From: Granulicella rosea
GTDB lineage: Bacteria > Acidobacteriota > Terriglobia > Terriglobales > Acidobacteriaceae
Length of the DNA stretch: 64,000 nucleotides
Direction of reading: 5' to 3'
Assembly: GCF_900188085.1 (NCBI RefSeq)
Contig: NZ_FZOU01000007.1
Span: 1-64,000 of the forward strand
A program made the translations under genes and the position numbers. Below are positions 40,220-45,407 of this stretch, in pieces. The notes under the pieces are model-generated. The model did no database searches. It was given only the letters and a program-made list of their open reading frames with translations, and had not been told where the DNA came from. Each line of letters opens with the position of its first letter. Within the stretch, counting starts at the first letter, position 1.

Positions 40220-41149
40220 CTAAGGCTTGCCGGAGTCCTTTTCCTCGATCACGTTCCCGTTCGCGTCCAGAACGCGGCTCTTCGCCTTGAAGATGTAGCG
40301 TTTGTAGTCGGTGTATTTCACGATCGTGCGGATGTGGACGTCCTGCGAGAGCGCGCCCTGCTGCGCGGCGAAGTGCAGGTTGCCCTCGGCCTTGGTGTAG
40401 GTCGGGAACCAGTATTTACCGTCCACCTGCTCATAGTAGGTGGTGAAGGGCGGCTGAAGGTCTTCGTGGCCCTTGCGCGTATCCTGCGGGACGGTCTTGC
40501 CGTTGATGAGCACGATCTGGAAGTCCTGCTGGTCGACCCAGACCTTGCCCTGGAAGTAGCGCTTGCCCTTTTCGAGCGTCTTCGGTCCAGCCTGGAAGAC
40601 GTAGGTGTCGAGCTCGTCCACCTTCTGCTTGCCCAGGTAGGTGACGTCGTACTTCGGCAGGTCTTCGGTGGTCAGGATGAAGGGCAGGCGGTTGCGGATC
40701 TCGTCGAAGTCGGCCTCGGTCATGATGACGCGCTCGATGGTGTTGGCCGGGGCGAAGAGCACGCGCTCGACGCGGCGGCCCTCGGGCGTGAAGTCGATCT
40801 GCGAGAGCTGCTGGTACTCGCCGTCGGGGCGGCCGGTGTCCTCGGAGATGGTGTCGGTCTTGACGAGCTGTTTGAAGGTGTACTCGTCGCGCGCCTTGCG
40901 GAACTCGGTCTCGCGGATGCCGAGCCGTTTGACGATCTCCTCGGGCGCGATGCCCTGCGGGGCGGAGGTGTCGAGATCGCCGAAGCCGGAGTCCTGCGCG
41001 GACGCCGCAGCCGGCGCCGGACCGGCAACCGGACCGTCCACATTTCGGACAGGTACCAGCGCGCGCAGCGGCGAGGCCGATACCAGAAGCAGCAGCAGAA
41101 CCGGCATCGCGGCGCGTGACGCCAAAGTCGTAGAACGTTTCCCGCGCAC
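40220..41149 (-). CDS. Exported LolA-like outer-membrane lipoprotein-sorting protein
   Basis: About 309 residues from GTG 41149, which gives a normal signal peptide (MRGKRSTTLASRAAMPVLLLL and on) and has AAAGG upstream. ATG 41224 and ATG 41107 are alternatives. Beta-rich motifs such as 'YDVTYLGKQKVDELDTYVFQAGPK' and 'YFQGKVWVDQQDFQIVLINGK' fit the LolA/LolB-like fold. 'GIAPEEIVKRLGIRETEFRKARDEYTFKQ' is an acidobacterial lead-in. It may chaperone lipids or lipoproteins in the periplasm. No partner genes are adjacent. Confidence 0.75.
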   Translation of the reverse strand: MRGKRSTTLASRAAMPVLLLLLVSASPLRALVPVRNVDGPVAGPAPAAASAQDSGFGDLDTSAPQGIAPEEIVKRLGIRETEFRKARDEYTFKQLVKTDTISEDTGRPDGEYQQLSQIDFTPEGRRVERVLFAPANTIERVIMTEADFDEIRNRLPFILTTEDLPKYDVTYLGKQKVDELDTYVFQAGPKTLEKGKRYFQGKVWVDQQDFQIVLINGKTVPQDTRKGHEDLQPPFTTYYEQVDGKYWFPTYTKAEGNLHFAAQQGALSQDVHIRTIVKYTDYKRYIFKAKSRVLDANGNVIEEKDSGKP

Positions 41150-41344
41150 GGACCTTTGGGTGATTGTTACCGGGTTCAGCCGGGCTCTATCGTAAGCAGC
41201 TTGAAGGGTAATTTGGTTCGGCATAAAGGTGTGCAGGACTCCCAGGCTGTGTGGTAACAAACCGCGGTGCCGGAAACGGCTTCGCTACGGATGATTAGAC
41301 GCCGAGGATACGCATTCGGTCGACATGAAGTGAGGGCAGCAGGC

Positions 41345-42988
41345 ATGAATCACGTCTTGGGGCAGCAAACCGCAATGGCAATCGCAACCGGCATGGGCTG
41401 GGACAACGTCGACCTGTGGGCCGGCGCTCACATGATCGCGATGATCTGCGTCCCGATTCTGGCCGTGACCTCGGTCGTGCTCTACCAGCAACTGAACGTC
41501 GAAACCGTGGCCAAGCGCAACGAACGCCGCCGCCGCGAAGAACTTGAAGCCTATGAGCGCATGGACACCGCCCTGCCCGCCAGCATCGGCGCCGGCGGCG
41601 CGTATGCGGTCGACGCCGCGCGCACCATGGCCAAGCAGGTGTGCCGCATCGTGACCGAAAAGAGCGTCTTTCCGCGCGCCGCCATGCTGATGCGCAATGC
41701 CGAAGGCCGCCTTTACTGCGCAGGCTCGGCCGGCGTGGACGACCTGACCCTCAACGCGCTGCTCGCCTGGGGCGAACAGGTGGTGGCGGAAGAGCGTGGC
41801 GCCACCGGCGCGGCCGACCCCAAGTCCGAAGTCGTACCCACCCGCGCCATCCGGCCCGGCAGCAAGAGCTTCACCATCCCCATCGGCACATGGGAGAACT
41901 TCGACCCCGAGGCCAGCAAGCGCAAGGTCGAAGGCAAGCGCGAACGCCGCAAGTGGCGCCGCGCGATCATCTCGCCGCTGCGCACGCCGGGCGGCCGGCT
42001 GGTGGGCGCCATCGCGGTCTGCGCGGACGACAGCGCGCGCCGCAGCCAGGAGTGGATGAAGAGCTCGAACCGAGGCATGAAGCCCGGCGAAGAGCGTCGC
42101 GAGCGCGGCCTCGAACAGGCCATGGGACCGATCGAGGCGCTCTGCGCCAAGCTGGCGACGACGATCGAGAATGCAGCCCTATCCGAGCGGCTCTTGCGTG
42201 CGGAGAAGCTCGCCGGGCTGGGCCAGCTCGCCGGCGGAGTCGCCCACGCGCTGAACAATCCGCTGACCGCGGTGCTGGGCTTCGCCGAGCTGATCGAAGA
42301 GACCTCGACCGACCCGCGCGTGCAGCAGGACGCCCGCACCATCGTCTCCGAGGCGCGGCGCATGCGCGACACCGTGCAGAGCCTGCTGAACTTCTGGCGG
42401 CCGGTCACGAGCGCCGACGAACCCGTGCAGATCGGCCCCATCGTGCGGGAGCTGACCGACGCCTGCGCCGCCACGCTCGAACAGCGCGGCGTGAAGCTGA
42501 TCGTCACCACGCCGGCCGACGCGCCGCCGATCCGCGGCAGCCGCGAACGCCTGCGCCAGGTGCTCGAACATCTGCTGAACAACGCCGCTCAGGCCATCGC
42601 CACACGCAGCGAAGAGCAGGCCAGGGAACAGACCAGCCGGCTCGGCGTCCTGCCCTCCACGGTCGACGAGCCGGAGATCGAGCACTCGATCCGGGTGACG
42701 ATCAGCCACGACGAACGCGCGCTGCATGTGATCGTCAGCGACACCGGCCCGGGATTCCGCGAGCCCGGCCGCGTCTTCGACCCCTTCTACACCACGCGCC
42801 AGCCCGGCGAGGGCGCCGGCCTCGGACTGAGCATCTGCTACGGCATCGTGCGCGAGCACGGCGGTGAGATCAGCGCCTTCAACCTGCATCCACGCGGCGC
42901 CGCGGTGGTCATCGAACTACCCGTCCGCAAGACGGTCACGGGCGAGAGCGGCAGCTCCGACCGCGTGCTGGTGCGGGATGTAGCCTGA
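41345..42988 (+). CDS. Membrane sensor histidine kinase
   Basis: A 547-residue kinase. ATG 41345 has GAGGG upstream. One membrane helix at about 29-50 is followed by a GAF-like cytosolic sensor region (about 95-275). Next come HisKA (H301 in 'GGVAHALNNPLTAVLGF') and HATPase_c (N box 'EHLLNNAAQAI', G1 'DTGPGF', F box 'FDPFYTT', G2 'GAGLGLSI'). The residue after the phospho-His is Ala, where Glu or Asp is usual, which may affect its phosphatase activity. No response regulator is next to it; the nearest receiver (25.3 kb) is degenerate. Confidence 0.9.
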   Translation: MNHVLGQQTAMAIATGMGWDNVDLWAGAHMIAMICVPILAVTSVVLYQQLNVETVAKRNERRRREELEAYERMDTALPASIGAGGAYAVDAARTMAKQVCRIVTEKSVFPRAAMLMRNAEGRLYCAGSAGVDDLTLNALLAWGEQVVAEERGATGAADPKSEVVPTRAIRPGSKSFTIPIGTWENFDPEASKRKVEGKRERRKWRRAIISPLRTPGGRLVGAIAVCADDSARRSQEWMKSSNRGMKPGEERRERGLEQAMGPIEALCAKLATTIENAALSERLLRAEKLAGLGQLAGGVAHALNNPLTAVLGFAELIEETSTDPRVQQDARTIVSEARRMRDTVQSLLNFWRPVTSADEPVQIGPIVRELTDACAATLEQRGVKLIVTTPADAPPIRGSRERLRQVLEHLLNNAAQAIATRSEEQAREQTSRLGVLPSTVDEPEIEHSIRVTISHDERALHVIVSDTGPGFREPGRVFDPFYTTRQPGEGAGLGLSICYGIVREHGGEISAFNLHPRGAAVVIELPVRKTVTGESGSSDRVLVRDVA

Positions 42989-42990
42989 GG

Positions 42991-44181
42991 CTAACTGCCC
43001 AAAGCGCGAAATCCCACACGGGCCGCCGAATAATCCACCATCAACTGTACCGCCAGTACGGACAAGCCGCCGATGTTCATTCCCGGCTGCCCGCGCATGA
43101 ACTCATTCACCTGACACATCACCAGCGTGAGTCCCTGCGCGGAGGCCGGCAACGCGGCTTCGTCGATCGTGTAGGTGAACGACGCGCCCCGATCGTCTCC
43201 CAGTGAGATCTGCAGATTCGCGCTGGTGGAGACGCAGTTGACCGAGCCGCTTGTCCAGGGTGGATTCGCCGCGGCTGGCGGCCATATCGTCCCATAGACC
43301 AGTCCGGTCGGATCGCTCAGATAGACCGACGTGCCGCCGGAATCGACCATCGCAATGGCGTTCGCACCGGGCGCCGGCCAGCCCGTCGCGGTCGAGGCGA
43401 TCTTCAACAGCTTCGGCCTCAGAGCCATCCAGGGGCAATTCGCGACGACCTGCAAAAACTGGTACCCGTTGGGTGCGGCGCCGTAGAGCCGCAGCGTCGA
43501 CTTCTCGGATACGCCCTGTGGGTTTGCGGCATTGAAGACCTCATCGGCGGTTGCGTAGTCGAACTCCGCGAACGGAGTGCCCGTCGCATACGCCAGAGGC
43601 GATTTGAGGGTGACGGGAATGCCTGCCGGAGTATTCCAACCGCTGGCGGTCCATGGCTCGATGCAGCCTGCTCCGAAGTTCGCCGTACGTCCCCCGCCCG
43701 CCGCCGAATCCGCCGTGCAGGCGAGGAAGACGCAGGCCTCAATGACGAAGGGCTCTCCGGTATCGGTGAGAAGCTGGATCGGCCCCTGAACCACATTGGC
43801 GGGACATCCCCAGGGCTCGGTCGCCTGACCCAGAATCGTGTACTGCGCCTGCCAGTTGGGGATCGCCGCGATGTCCTCCCAGCGCGGCACCACCAGAACG
43901 GTATTTCCAGAGTCCAGGATCAGGGACACATTCATGCCCGCCGGGCTTCCCGCGAAACCGGCATAGAGATACGCATCGAAGCTGCTGGCCAGCGATACGG
44001 TCGAAAGGGAGATGTCGACGCTGGCCGGCGGCGCGGCGCCCACCATGCGCATCATCCCGGTGAACAGCTTGCTTACACGTCCCGGCTTCGTTCGACGCGG
44101 CTTCGGCCTATGCTCTCTGGGAAGAGGCACGGCATGGTGCAGCGCCGCGCGAGTAAGCCGGTTTACGGAAAGTAGCTCCAT
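42991..44181 (-). CDS. Pepsin-like aspartic protease homologue
   Basis: A 396-residue protein. ATG 44181 has TTGGAGA 8 bases upstream. 'MNVSLILDSGNTVLVVP' around D90 aligns with the first pepsin lobe motif 'xxFDTGSSxLWVP'. 'AIAMVDSGGTSVYLSD' around D280 aligns with the second 'AIVDTGTSLL'. The Asp-Asp spacing of 190 is close to pepsin's 183. The end 'VDYSAARVGFRA' resembles the pepsin C-terminal strand 'FDRANNRVGFA'. The second motif has one extra Gly and DSG replaces DTG. The basic N-terminus (residues 1-48) is no clear signal peptide. The neighbour at 44254-45246 is secreted. It could instead be an unrelated beta-rich family with chance DSG motifs. Confidence 0.6.
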   Translation of the reverse strand: MELLSVNRLTRAALHHAVPLPREHRPKPRRTKPGRVSKLFTGMMRMVGAAPPASVDISLSTVSLASSFDAYLYAGFAGSPAGMNVSLILDSGNTVLVVPRWEDIAAIPNWQAQYTILGQATEPWGCPANVVQGPIQLLTDTGEPFVIEACVFLACTADSAAGGGRTANFGAGCIEPWTASGWNTPAGIPVTLKSPLAYATGTPFAEFDYATADEVFNAANPQGVSEKSTLRLYGAAPNGYQFLQVVANCPWMALRPKLLKIASTATGWPAPGANAIAMVDSGGTSVYLSDPTGLVYGTIWPPAAANPPWTSGSVNCVSTSANLQISLGDDRGASFTYTIDEAALPASAQGLTLVMCQVNEFMRGQPGMNIGGLSVLAVQLMVDYSAARVGFRALGS

Positions 44182-44253
44182 CGCGAGGGTCTCCAAATTG
44201 GATTGGTCGTACTTTCTTCGAGCCCCTGTTCCACAAAGTCTTTCAACGTCGAC

Positions 44254-45246
44254 TTACTGAGCCGGCTGCGACTGATAGGTGATCGCGAACGACCACGCCT
44301 TGAAGTTGTTGACCTTGGTTTGCGCCATCGTCGTGCTGTCGATGTAGGTCTGCGACGGGCCGAACGCGCGCGAGATCGACACCCTGGCGGAGTTGGTGAT
44401 CAGGATGCCAGCCGATACCTGGCCGATGTCGTTGTTCACCCGCTTGCCGAAGCCGTAGTCGCGGGCGTATCCGTGCGACGTATAGCTGTACCCATACGAA
44501 CCGCCGATAAAGACGGACCCCGCAAAGGCGCCGGAGCCGGAGGCAGGAGCATTGAGCGAATTCACGACGAAGAATGACTCGATCTGCGTGGAATGGTGCG
44601 ATGGCGGAGAGGAGGCGGTCGTGGATGTGCCTGCCTTGAAGTTCTGAATATCGACGCCCTCCCGGCTTACCACGTCGACCTCCCAGCCGGTTCCCCCGGC
44701 CTTTGTCATGTCGTGGTTGTACAAGAGAAGCGGAAAGTCGCCGACGAATTGGATCGTGCCGCCATAGAGCATGTTCTGCGTCGCCTGCCCGGCCGCGCTG
44801 GCGGAGAGAGTAGGGACCGTCCCCTGGACGACGCTGGTCTCGCCGGTCGAACCCGCCTGAATGTTCGAGGTGACCTTGGCCTGCCATCCGCCTGGCATGA
44901 TGAGCGACACCAGATCGGCCGAGACCGTCGCCGAACCGGACGCGCCGTTGTAAACCGAGCCTACCTGAGTCAGTGGCGCGACGGGTCCGTTTGTCCCGAA
45001 GAACGACTGAATCGAGGCGCTATCCTGCCCGATTGTGGGTATGGGGCAGAACGAACATGGGTTTGGGCTGCTTCCGTTTTGCGGCGCAAGCGCAGGCGCG
45101 TGAAGGTTGCTGGCCTTGCCGGATACCTGCGAAGTGCTCGCGGCTGTCGGGACGTGAATCGTCTGCGCGGCGGCGAAGTGAGAGCACAGAAAAAGGCCAA
45201 GGACGGCCACGAAGACATGGGAATGCCTGTTTGAATTGGAACGCAT
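44254..45246 (-). CDS. Secreted protein, unknown
   Basis: A 330-residue product. ATG 45246 has GGGGAGA 6 bases upstream and starts a signal peptide (MRSNSNRHSHVFVAVLGLFL, then cleavage near AAAQ). A Ser/Thr/Ala/Gly-rich linker with 'PCSFCPIP' leads to a beta-rich domain with many aromatic and Gly-rich strands ('FAGSVFIGGSYGYSYTSHGYARDYGF'), like an outer-membrane barrel or surface adhesin. It lies 72 bases upstream of the pepsin-like gene in the same direction, so it is the likely operon partner. No family is recognised. Confidence 0.65.
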   Translation of the reverse strand: MRSNSNRHSHVFVAVLGLFLCSHFAAAQTIHVPTAASTSQVSGKASNLHAPALAPQNGSSPNPCSFCPIPTIGQDSASIQSFFGTNGPVAPLTQVGSVYNGASGSATVSADLVSLIMPGGWQAKVTSNIQAGSTGETSVVQGTVPTLSASAAGQATQNMLYGGTIQFVGDFPLLLYNHDMTKAGGTGWEVDVVSREGVDIQNFKAGTSTTASSPPSHHSTQIESFFVVNSLNAPASGSGAFAGSVFIGGSYGYSYTSHGYARDYGFGKRVNNDIGQVSAGILITNSARVSISRAFGPSQTYIDSTTMAQTKVNNFKAWSFAITYQSQPAQ

Positions 45247-45407
45247 ATTTTCTCCCCTAATTGCTCGATAGTGCAGGGCCCATGTGGTTTGGATTGACAG
45301 GCCAAGTCTCTGTGGGAGAACGATTTGCGTCAACAGGAACAGGTTGGCCCGGTATCCGCCGGGTTAACAGGCGCAAGTCGGTTTAGAGTGATGGGTGGAG
45401 ATACGCC

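What the first reader, a model, noticed from the sequence alone, without database searches (positions are those of the whole stretch)
42991..44181. Bacterial protein with two-lobed pepsin-like motifs
Pepsin-type (A1) aspartic proteases are rare in bacteria. This 396-residue protein has DSG motifs at D90 and D280, 190 residues apart (pepsin: 183), each in the correct hydrophobic context, including LxVP after the first. A pepsin-like final strand is also present. Its operon neighbour is a secreted protein that could be a substrate or surface partner.
Basis: partly seen in the sequence, partly recalled or inferred. Interest (0 to 1): 0.62.

Follow-up and report, generated by a model that had tools for sequence, protein, structure and literature searches.

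The report
Orphan pepsin-like protein in an acidobacterium
One bacterium of the phylum Acidobacteriota carries a lone, extremely diverged protein whose sequence is laid out like the two-lobed enzyme pepsin, a type rare in bacteria; the resemblance is better than chance, but fold and activity are unproven.

Summary
The gene is real. It lies on the minus strand (42991-44181; 396 aa, ATG at 44181). The two DSG motifs are at D90 and D280, 190 residues apart, as described. No Pfam, NCBIfam, PHROG, PADLOC or PDB-sequence match exists, and no orthologue was found in about 800 Acidobacteriota genomes or in GTDB contigs. The one relative is a 50-residue C-terminal gene remnant (46% identity) in another Acidobacteriaceae genome.

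A three-block pepsin-landmark score beats 0/20,000 shuffles and 0/838 ORFs from its own genome. hhalign against eukaryotic A1 proteases ranks it first of about 900 sequences. Landmarks fit a pepsin-like layout: N-hairpin, D90, NFG168-170, D280, Cys316/Cys356 (pepsin Cys249/282), and NIGG...D383-x5-VGF.

Strict family A1 membership fails or is open. The residue after each DSG is Asn or Gly, both ψ-motifs begin with Asn, no flap Tyr can be assigned, and HMMER sees nothing. AlphaFold models are unusable (pLDDT 32 and 35). There is no signal peptide, as in bacterial shewasins.

The gene and its secreted neighbour sit between a histidine kinase gene and recX, which are adjacent in three relatives. 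The pairing is not conserved. Best reading: a diverged bilobal cytoplasmic pepsin-like protease, or an inactive derivative.

The parts
42991..44181 (-). Gene for the 396-aa orphan pepsin-like protein P0001 (stop codon at 42991-42993)
44017..44181 (-). Residues 1-55: basic, non-hydrophobic N-terminal extension (11 Lys/Arg against 2 acidic); not a signal peptide; possible prosegment (inference)
   Evidence: sequence
43885..43977 (-). Residues 69-99: N-lobe hairpin plus first active-site motif (DAYLYAGFAGSPAGMNVSLILDSGNTVLVVP, D90)
43906..43914 (-). D90-S91-G92 triplet
43672..43680 (-). N168-F169-G170: candidate N-lobe psi-loop motif (G170 is 80 residues after D90; in pepsin G122 is 90 after D32)
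   Evidence: assignment by comparison, not significant on its own (psiN P 0.60)
43336..43344 (-). D280-S281-G282 triplet in AIAMVDSGGTSVYLSDP, second active-site motif
43114..43236 (-). C316 ... C356, at the places of pepsin Cys249 and Cys282; C356 kept in the remnant relative
43009..43077 (-). Residues 369-391: NIGGLSVLAVQLMVDYSAARVGF, C-lobe psi-loop and last strands; conserved in the remnant relative
44254..45246 (-). Upstream gene in the same direction: 330-aa secreted protein, patchy in the family, no known domain
42989..45407 (.). Stretch absent between the kinase gene and recX in three same-genus relatives (L005, L011, L014)
41267..42988 (+). Left flank: sensor histidine kinase, convergent with P0001
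45408..45983 (+). Right flank: gene read here as recX (label from my own reading, no family search run), next to the kinase gene in relatives

Best explanation
P0001 is a highly diverged, single-chain, two-lobed aspartic protease homologue of the pepsin type. Each lobe presents one Asp (D90, D280) on a psi-loop. The two would face each other across one cleft and activate a water to cut a peptide bond, without dimerising. It has no signal peptide, so it most likely works in the cytoplasm, like the known bacterial pepsin homologues (shewasins). Shown here: the gene, the motifs, their spacing, and a landmark pattern better than chance. Inferred: the fold, the facing of the two Asp, the location and the catalysis. 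The substrate is unknown.
For: The three-block A1 landmark score of 42.4 beats 0/20,000 shuffles and 0/838 ORFs of the same genome; the best ORF of 300-500 aa scores 24.2. With DSG fixed: pre-D1 P 0.014, post-D1 P 0.047, last strands P 0.0014, sum 0/20,000. hhalign of an 8-sequence A1 profile ranks P0001 first (35.4; next decoy 26.0). Its alternative alignments pair FDAYLYAGF-AGSPAGMNVSLILDSGNTVLVVP with pepsin [32 protein letters not shown], and AIAMVDSGGTSVYLSDPTGLVYGTI...VNCVS with QAIVDTGTSLLTG--PTSAI-ANI...VISCSS. MAFFT without guidance aligns both Asp and NIGG...VDYSAARVGF to ILGG...FDFRNSRVTF of Acidobacteriota bilobal proteins. The best self-alignment of the two halves puts DSG on DSG (not significant alone). 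The MSA-based model, although poor, finds almost only A1 proteases in the PDB. The D-D spacing of 190 is close to pepsin's 183; in the nine tandem retropepsin-like proteins aligned here it is about 131-177 (from coordinates). Known bacterial A1 proteins also lack signal peptides (PMC2761423, PMC4814920).
Against: HMMER sees nothing. A seven-block test gives only z about 2.7, with 8/1000 shuffles and 18/362 ORFs at or above it, and the middle blocks (flap, LLGG) do not fit. The three blocks were picked after seeing that result. AlphaFold gave no confident fold and Foldseek no significant match (best E 0.12, TM about 0.2). Canonical Ser/Thr after both DSG, canonical psi-motifs and the flap Tyr are lacking.
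Confidence: 0.68

Rival explanations
1. Same fold, but a non-peptidase: a pepsin-like scaffold that binds a ligand or inhibits, as in plant xylanase inhibitors or pregnancy-associated glycoproteins.
For: Asn93 and Gly283 replace the Ser/Thr that hydrogen-bond the catalytic Asp in pepsin; Asn starts both psi-motifs; no flap Tyr assignable. Rawlings and Bateman judged bacterial homologues lacking the hydrophobic-hydrophobic-Gly motifs unlikely to be active (PMC2761423). The only relative is a dead fragment, so the gene is dispensable.
Against: Both Asp and both Gly of the two DSG motifs are kept, whereas the dead A1 proteins named in PMC2761423 have lost active-site Asp. DSG is an accepted form of the motif.
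Confidence: 0.3
2. It is not from the eukaryote-like A1 line but a lengthened member of the tandem (two-domain) retropepsin-like proteins that occur widely in Acidobacteriota.
For: Such two-DTG proteins with TPR repeats were found in this genome (L082, G000:C6:188981-190657) and in other Acidobacteriota. Last strands align without a gap.
Against: The tandem profile does not detect P0001 above decoys (rank 14 of 629, score 20.7), whereas the A1 profile does (rank 1). C316/C356 match an A1 Cys pair. No TPR and no signal peptide.
Confidence: 0.17
3. The two DSG motifs are a coincidence in an unrelated beta-rich orphan protein.
For: Failed HMMER, weak seven-block score, no confident model.
Against: Landmarks outside the DSG triplets exceed 20,000 shuffles with the triplets fixed; none of 838 ORFs has such a motif pair or reaches the score; hhalign rank 1.
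Confidence: 0.15

Closest known systems
Shewasins and other bacterial family A1 pepsin homologues (Shewanella, Colwellia, Marinomonas, Sinorhizobium)
   Same: Single-chain layout with two D[ST]G motifs, no signal peptide, similar length (368-561 aa in PMC2761423), sporadic distribution
   Different: P0001 is not detected by PF00026; DSGN/DSGG instead of D-[ST]-G-[ST] or Ala; no assignable Tyr/Phe75; different phylum; long basic N-terminus
Eukaryotic pepsin family A1 (pepsin, cathepsin D)
   Same: D-D spacing 190 vs 183; hairpin-Asp-hydrophobic-Val-Pro; Cys pair at 249/282 positions; last strands G-x11-D-x5-VGF
   Different: No significant pairwise similarity for most; psi-motifs NFG/NIG; no secretion signal; middle blocks do not match
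Tandem retropepsin-like aspartyl proteases (PF13650/PF13975 twice, often after TPR) of Acidobacteriota
   Same: Two DTG/DSG in one chain; ILGG...FDFRNSRVTF last strands
   Different: DTG motifs closer together (about 131-177), TPR part present, detected by Pfam; their profile does not detect P0001
DUF3443 (PF11925)
   Same: About 400 aa with two DTG/DSG motifs; looks pepsin-like by eye
   Different: No profile similarity to P0001; secreted or lipoprotein-like; different C-terminus (WGLPFFFGR)

Membership tests
Peptidase family A1 (pepsin) | Two lobes in one chain, each with hydrophobic-hydrophobic-Asp-[Ser/Thr]-Gly, about 183 apart | tested here: met
   D90 and D280, 190 apart, at sequence level
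Peptidase family A1 (pepsin) | Ser/Thr directly after D-[ST]-G (Xbb of the A1 motif, PMC2761423; Ala in most bacterial second motifs) | tested here: not met
   Asn93 and Gly283
Peptidase family A1 (pepsin) | Hydrophobic-hydrophobic-Gly psi-loop motif in each lobe | tested here: inconclusive
   NFG 168-170 and NIG 369-371 near the expected places, but the first residue is Asn in both
Peptidase family A1 (pepsin) | Flap Tyr75 (or Phe) | tested here: inconclusive
   No Tyr at the aligned place; the flap block scores -2.5; Tyr114 or Trp124 possible by eye
Peptidase family A1 (pepsin) | Cys249-Cys282 pair | tested here: met
   C316 and C356 in comparable positions; other A1 Cys pairs not recognised
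Peptidase family A1 (pepsin) | Recognised by Pfam PF00026 or by sequence search of solved A1 structures | tested here: not met
   No Pfam match at E up to 1; no PDB chain at E up to 10
Peptidase family A1 (pepsin) | Bilobal fold with facing Asp | tested here: inconclusive
   AlphaFold mean pLDDT 31.8 and 34.8; Foldseek best E 0.12 to cathepsin D
Peptidase family A1 (pepsin) | Pepstatin-sensitive proteolysis | not testable with these tools
   needs purified protein
Tandem retropepsin-like (PF13650/PF13975) | Detected by PF13650/PF13975 or by the tandem profile | tested here: not met
DUF3443 (PF11925) | Detected by PF11925 or its profile | tested here: not met

The most novel reading that the evidence does not exclude
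P0001 is an active, cytoplasmic, bilobal aspartic protease of a new family in clan AA, with DSGN/DSGG active-site motifs and N-h-G psi-loops, separate from both eukaryote-like A1 and bacterial tandem retropepsins, surviving in a single acidobacterial lineage.
Probability: 0.2. Interest if true: 0.7.

Novelty: new variant of a known kind. Interest (0 to 1): 0.42.

Why it matters
Bilobal pepsin homologues in bacteria bear on whether the pepsin duplication came before eukaryotes or was acquired by transfer. The 2009 survey knew seven bacterial species, all Proteobacteria (PMC2761423). A diverged example in Acidobacteriota, with both motifs altered after the Gly, would widen the range of the architecture and test which active-site residues are really needed.

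Tried and rejected
HMMER with an eight-sequence A1 profile and with a DUF3443 profile: no signal above shuffles. Seven-block chain: weak, middle blocks misplaced. Tandem retropepsin profile: P0001 not above decoys. Alignments mixing DUF3443 with P0001 were out of register in two of three sets, so DUF3443 was dropped as a bridge; the remnant disturbed the register at the last strands and was left out of the modelling alignment. Horizontal transfer from GC3 alone: rejected as proof, since GC3 of the pair is lower than that of the flanks but codon usage is at the genome median. Neighbour as substrate or partner: pairing not conserved. pH inference from Gly at pepsin position 218: not used, because shewasin D is active at acidic pH (PMC4814920) although six of seven bacterial homologues have Ala218 (PMC2761423).

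Full report
WHAT IS THERE. The gene is on the minus strand of the window, 44181 down to 42991, 396 codons. A GGAG lies about 8 bases before the ATG. Its stop is two bases from the stop of a convergent histidine kinase gene (41267-42988). Upstream in the same direction, after 72 bp, is a gene for a 330-aa protein with a clear signal peptide (44254-45246). The strand was not stated.

WHO ELSE HAS IT. Pfam, NCBIfam, PHROGs, PADLOC and PDB sequences give nothing. No relative is in phage or plasmid records, viral contigs or GTDB genome contigs with the single sequence. Among 396 phylum genomes only its own genome matches. Among 398 genomes of its family one more matches: a C-terminal piece, E 1e-7, in G653, apparently the same contig as the GTDB MAG record CAILBQ010000357.1 (L047). 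The piece is 50 residues, 23 identical (FPIAAQGLRLVMCENNESMMGQQGRNIGDISAVVNSILIDIENHQVGLRS), with nothing recognisable upstream: a gene remnant. Codon positions 1 and 2 are more conserved than position 3 (31, 32, 20 of 50), so it evolved as protein.

IS THE PEPSIN LAYOUT MORE THAN CHANCE. I used eight eukaryotic A1 sequences. HMMER with this profile does not see P0001. A chained seven-block score is weak (z 2.7; 8/1000 shuffles and 18/362 ORFs at least as high), because only three blocks fit: hairpin with D1, D2, and the last strands. A test on those three with loose spacing gives 42.4, against a maximum of 37.7 in 20,000 shuffles and none of 838 ORFs from 1.6 Mb of the same genome; for ORFs of 300-500 aa the maximum is 24.2. 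The best ORF under 1000 aa is a true tandem aspartyl protease (L082), which shows that the method works. Caveats: the three blocks were chosen after the first test, and the gene was chosen for its motifs. To remove the second bias I kept both DSG triplets fixed and shuffled the rest: last strands P 0.0014, pre-D1 hairpin P 0.014, post-D1 P 0.047, D2 flanks P 0.05-0.08, sum above all 20,000. hhalign, with real ORFs and shuffles as decoys, ranks P0001 first (35.4; next 26.0). The alternative alignments place D90 on Asp32 and D280 on Asp215; the top-scoring one puts D90 on Asp215, which is understandable if the lobes are themselves homologous.

LANDMARKS. By comparison with pepsin: hairpin DAYLYAGFAGSPAGMNVSLILDSG; NFG 168-170 as N-lobe ψ-motif; D280; C316 and C356 at the places of Cys249 and Cys282 (C356 is kept in the remnant); NIGG 369-372; D383; VGF 389-391. 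MAFFT, unguided, aligned both Asp and the last strands with nine Acidobacteriota two-domain aspartyl proteases in three modes; invariant columns include D90, G92, D280, G282 and G371. Against strict A1 membership: Asn93 and Gly283 follow the two DSG triplets where A1 has Ser/Thr (PMC2761423), both ψ-motifs start with Asn, and the flap block does not fit.

STRUCTURE. AlphaFold alone gave mean pLDDT 31.8, and with a ten-row alignment of tandem proteins 34.8. The second model's Foldseek list is almost all A1 proteases although no A1 sequence was in the alignment, but E is 0.12 at best and TM about 0.2. The alignment rows are themselves aspartyl proteases, so this is only weak support. The single-sequence model matches nothing sensible. 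The fold is therefore not established.

SURROUNDINGS. In same-genus relatives L005, L011 and L014 the kinase gene is directly followed by recX; the two-gene stretch is absent. It was gained here or lost there. GC3 of the pair is 0.77-0.79 against 0.85-0.91 for flanking genes, but codon usage is at the genome median, so recent foreign origin is not shown. The neighbour has relatives in five other Acidobacteriaceae genomes, none beside a pepsin-like gene, and the genome with the remnant lacks the neighbour. Functional coupling of the pair is therefore unsupported.

HOW IT MOST LIKELY WORKS. A cytoplasmic single-chain protease with one Asp per lobe is the best-supported mechanism, by analogy with shewasin D, which has no signal peptide, accumulates in the cytoplasm and is inhibited by pepstatin (PMC4814920). 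I put about 0.68 on the bilobal pepsin-like reading; within and beside it stand an inactive relative of the same fold and the tandem retropepsin line, and about 0.15 is left for coincidence. The first 55 residues carry 11 Lys/Arg against 2 acidic residues, which recalls the basic prosegment of pepsinogens; this is inference only.

VERDICT. It is a new variant of a known kind, of moderate interest, to be decided by intact orthologues and a protease assay.

Noticed in passing
L082:8981-10657 (own genome, G000:C6:188981-190657): A 559-aa TPR protein with two retropepsin-like domains (PF13650); similar two-DTG single-chain proteins occur in several other Acidobacteriota, so bilobal clan-AA proteins of another kind are not rare in the phylum.
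   Followed up: partly
L016, L017, L048-L052: DUF3443 proteins (PF11925, function unknown) carry two DTG/DSG motifs and an ANGILGVG motif in pepsin-like order; in two Burkholderia-group plasmids they follow a DUF2844 gene. No paper in the library mentions DUF3443.
   Followed up: partly
L018:1504-1653 (G653; CAILBQ010000357.1): Remnant of a second member of the P0001 family, upstream of a secreted protein gene.
   Followed up: yes
window 44254-45246 (-): Secreted 330-aa protein of a patchy Acidobacteriaceae family without a named domain; relatives at 54-57% identity in G708 and G503.
   Followed up: partly
window 40220-41260 (-): LolA-like outer-membrane lipoprotein-sorting-type protein (PF17131, below cut-off); relatives align only from residue 93, so the real start is probably further downstream.
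   Followed up: no
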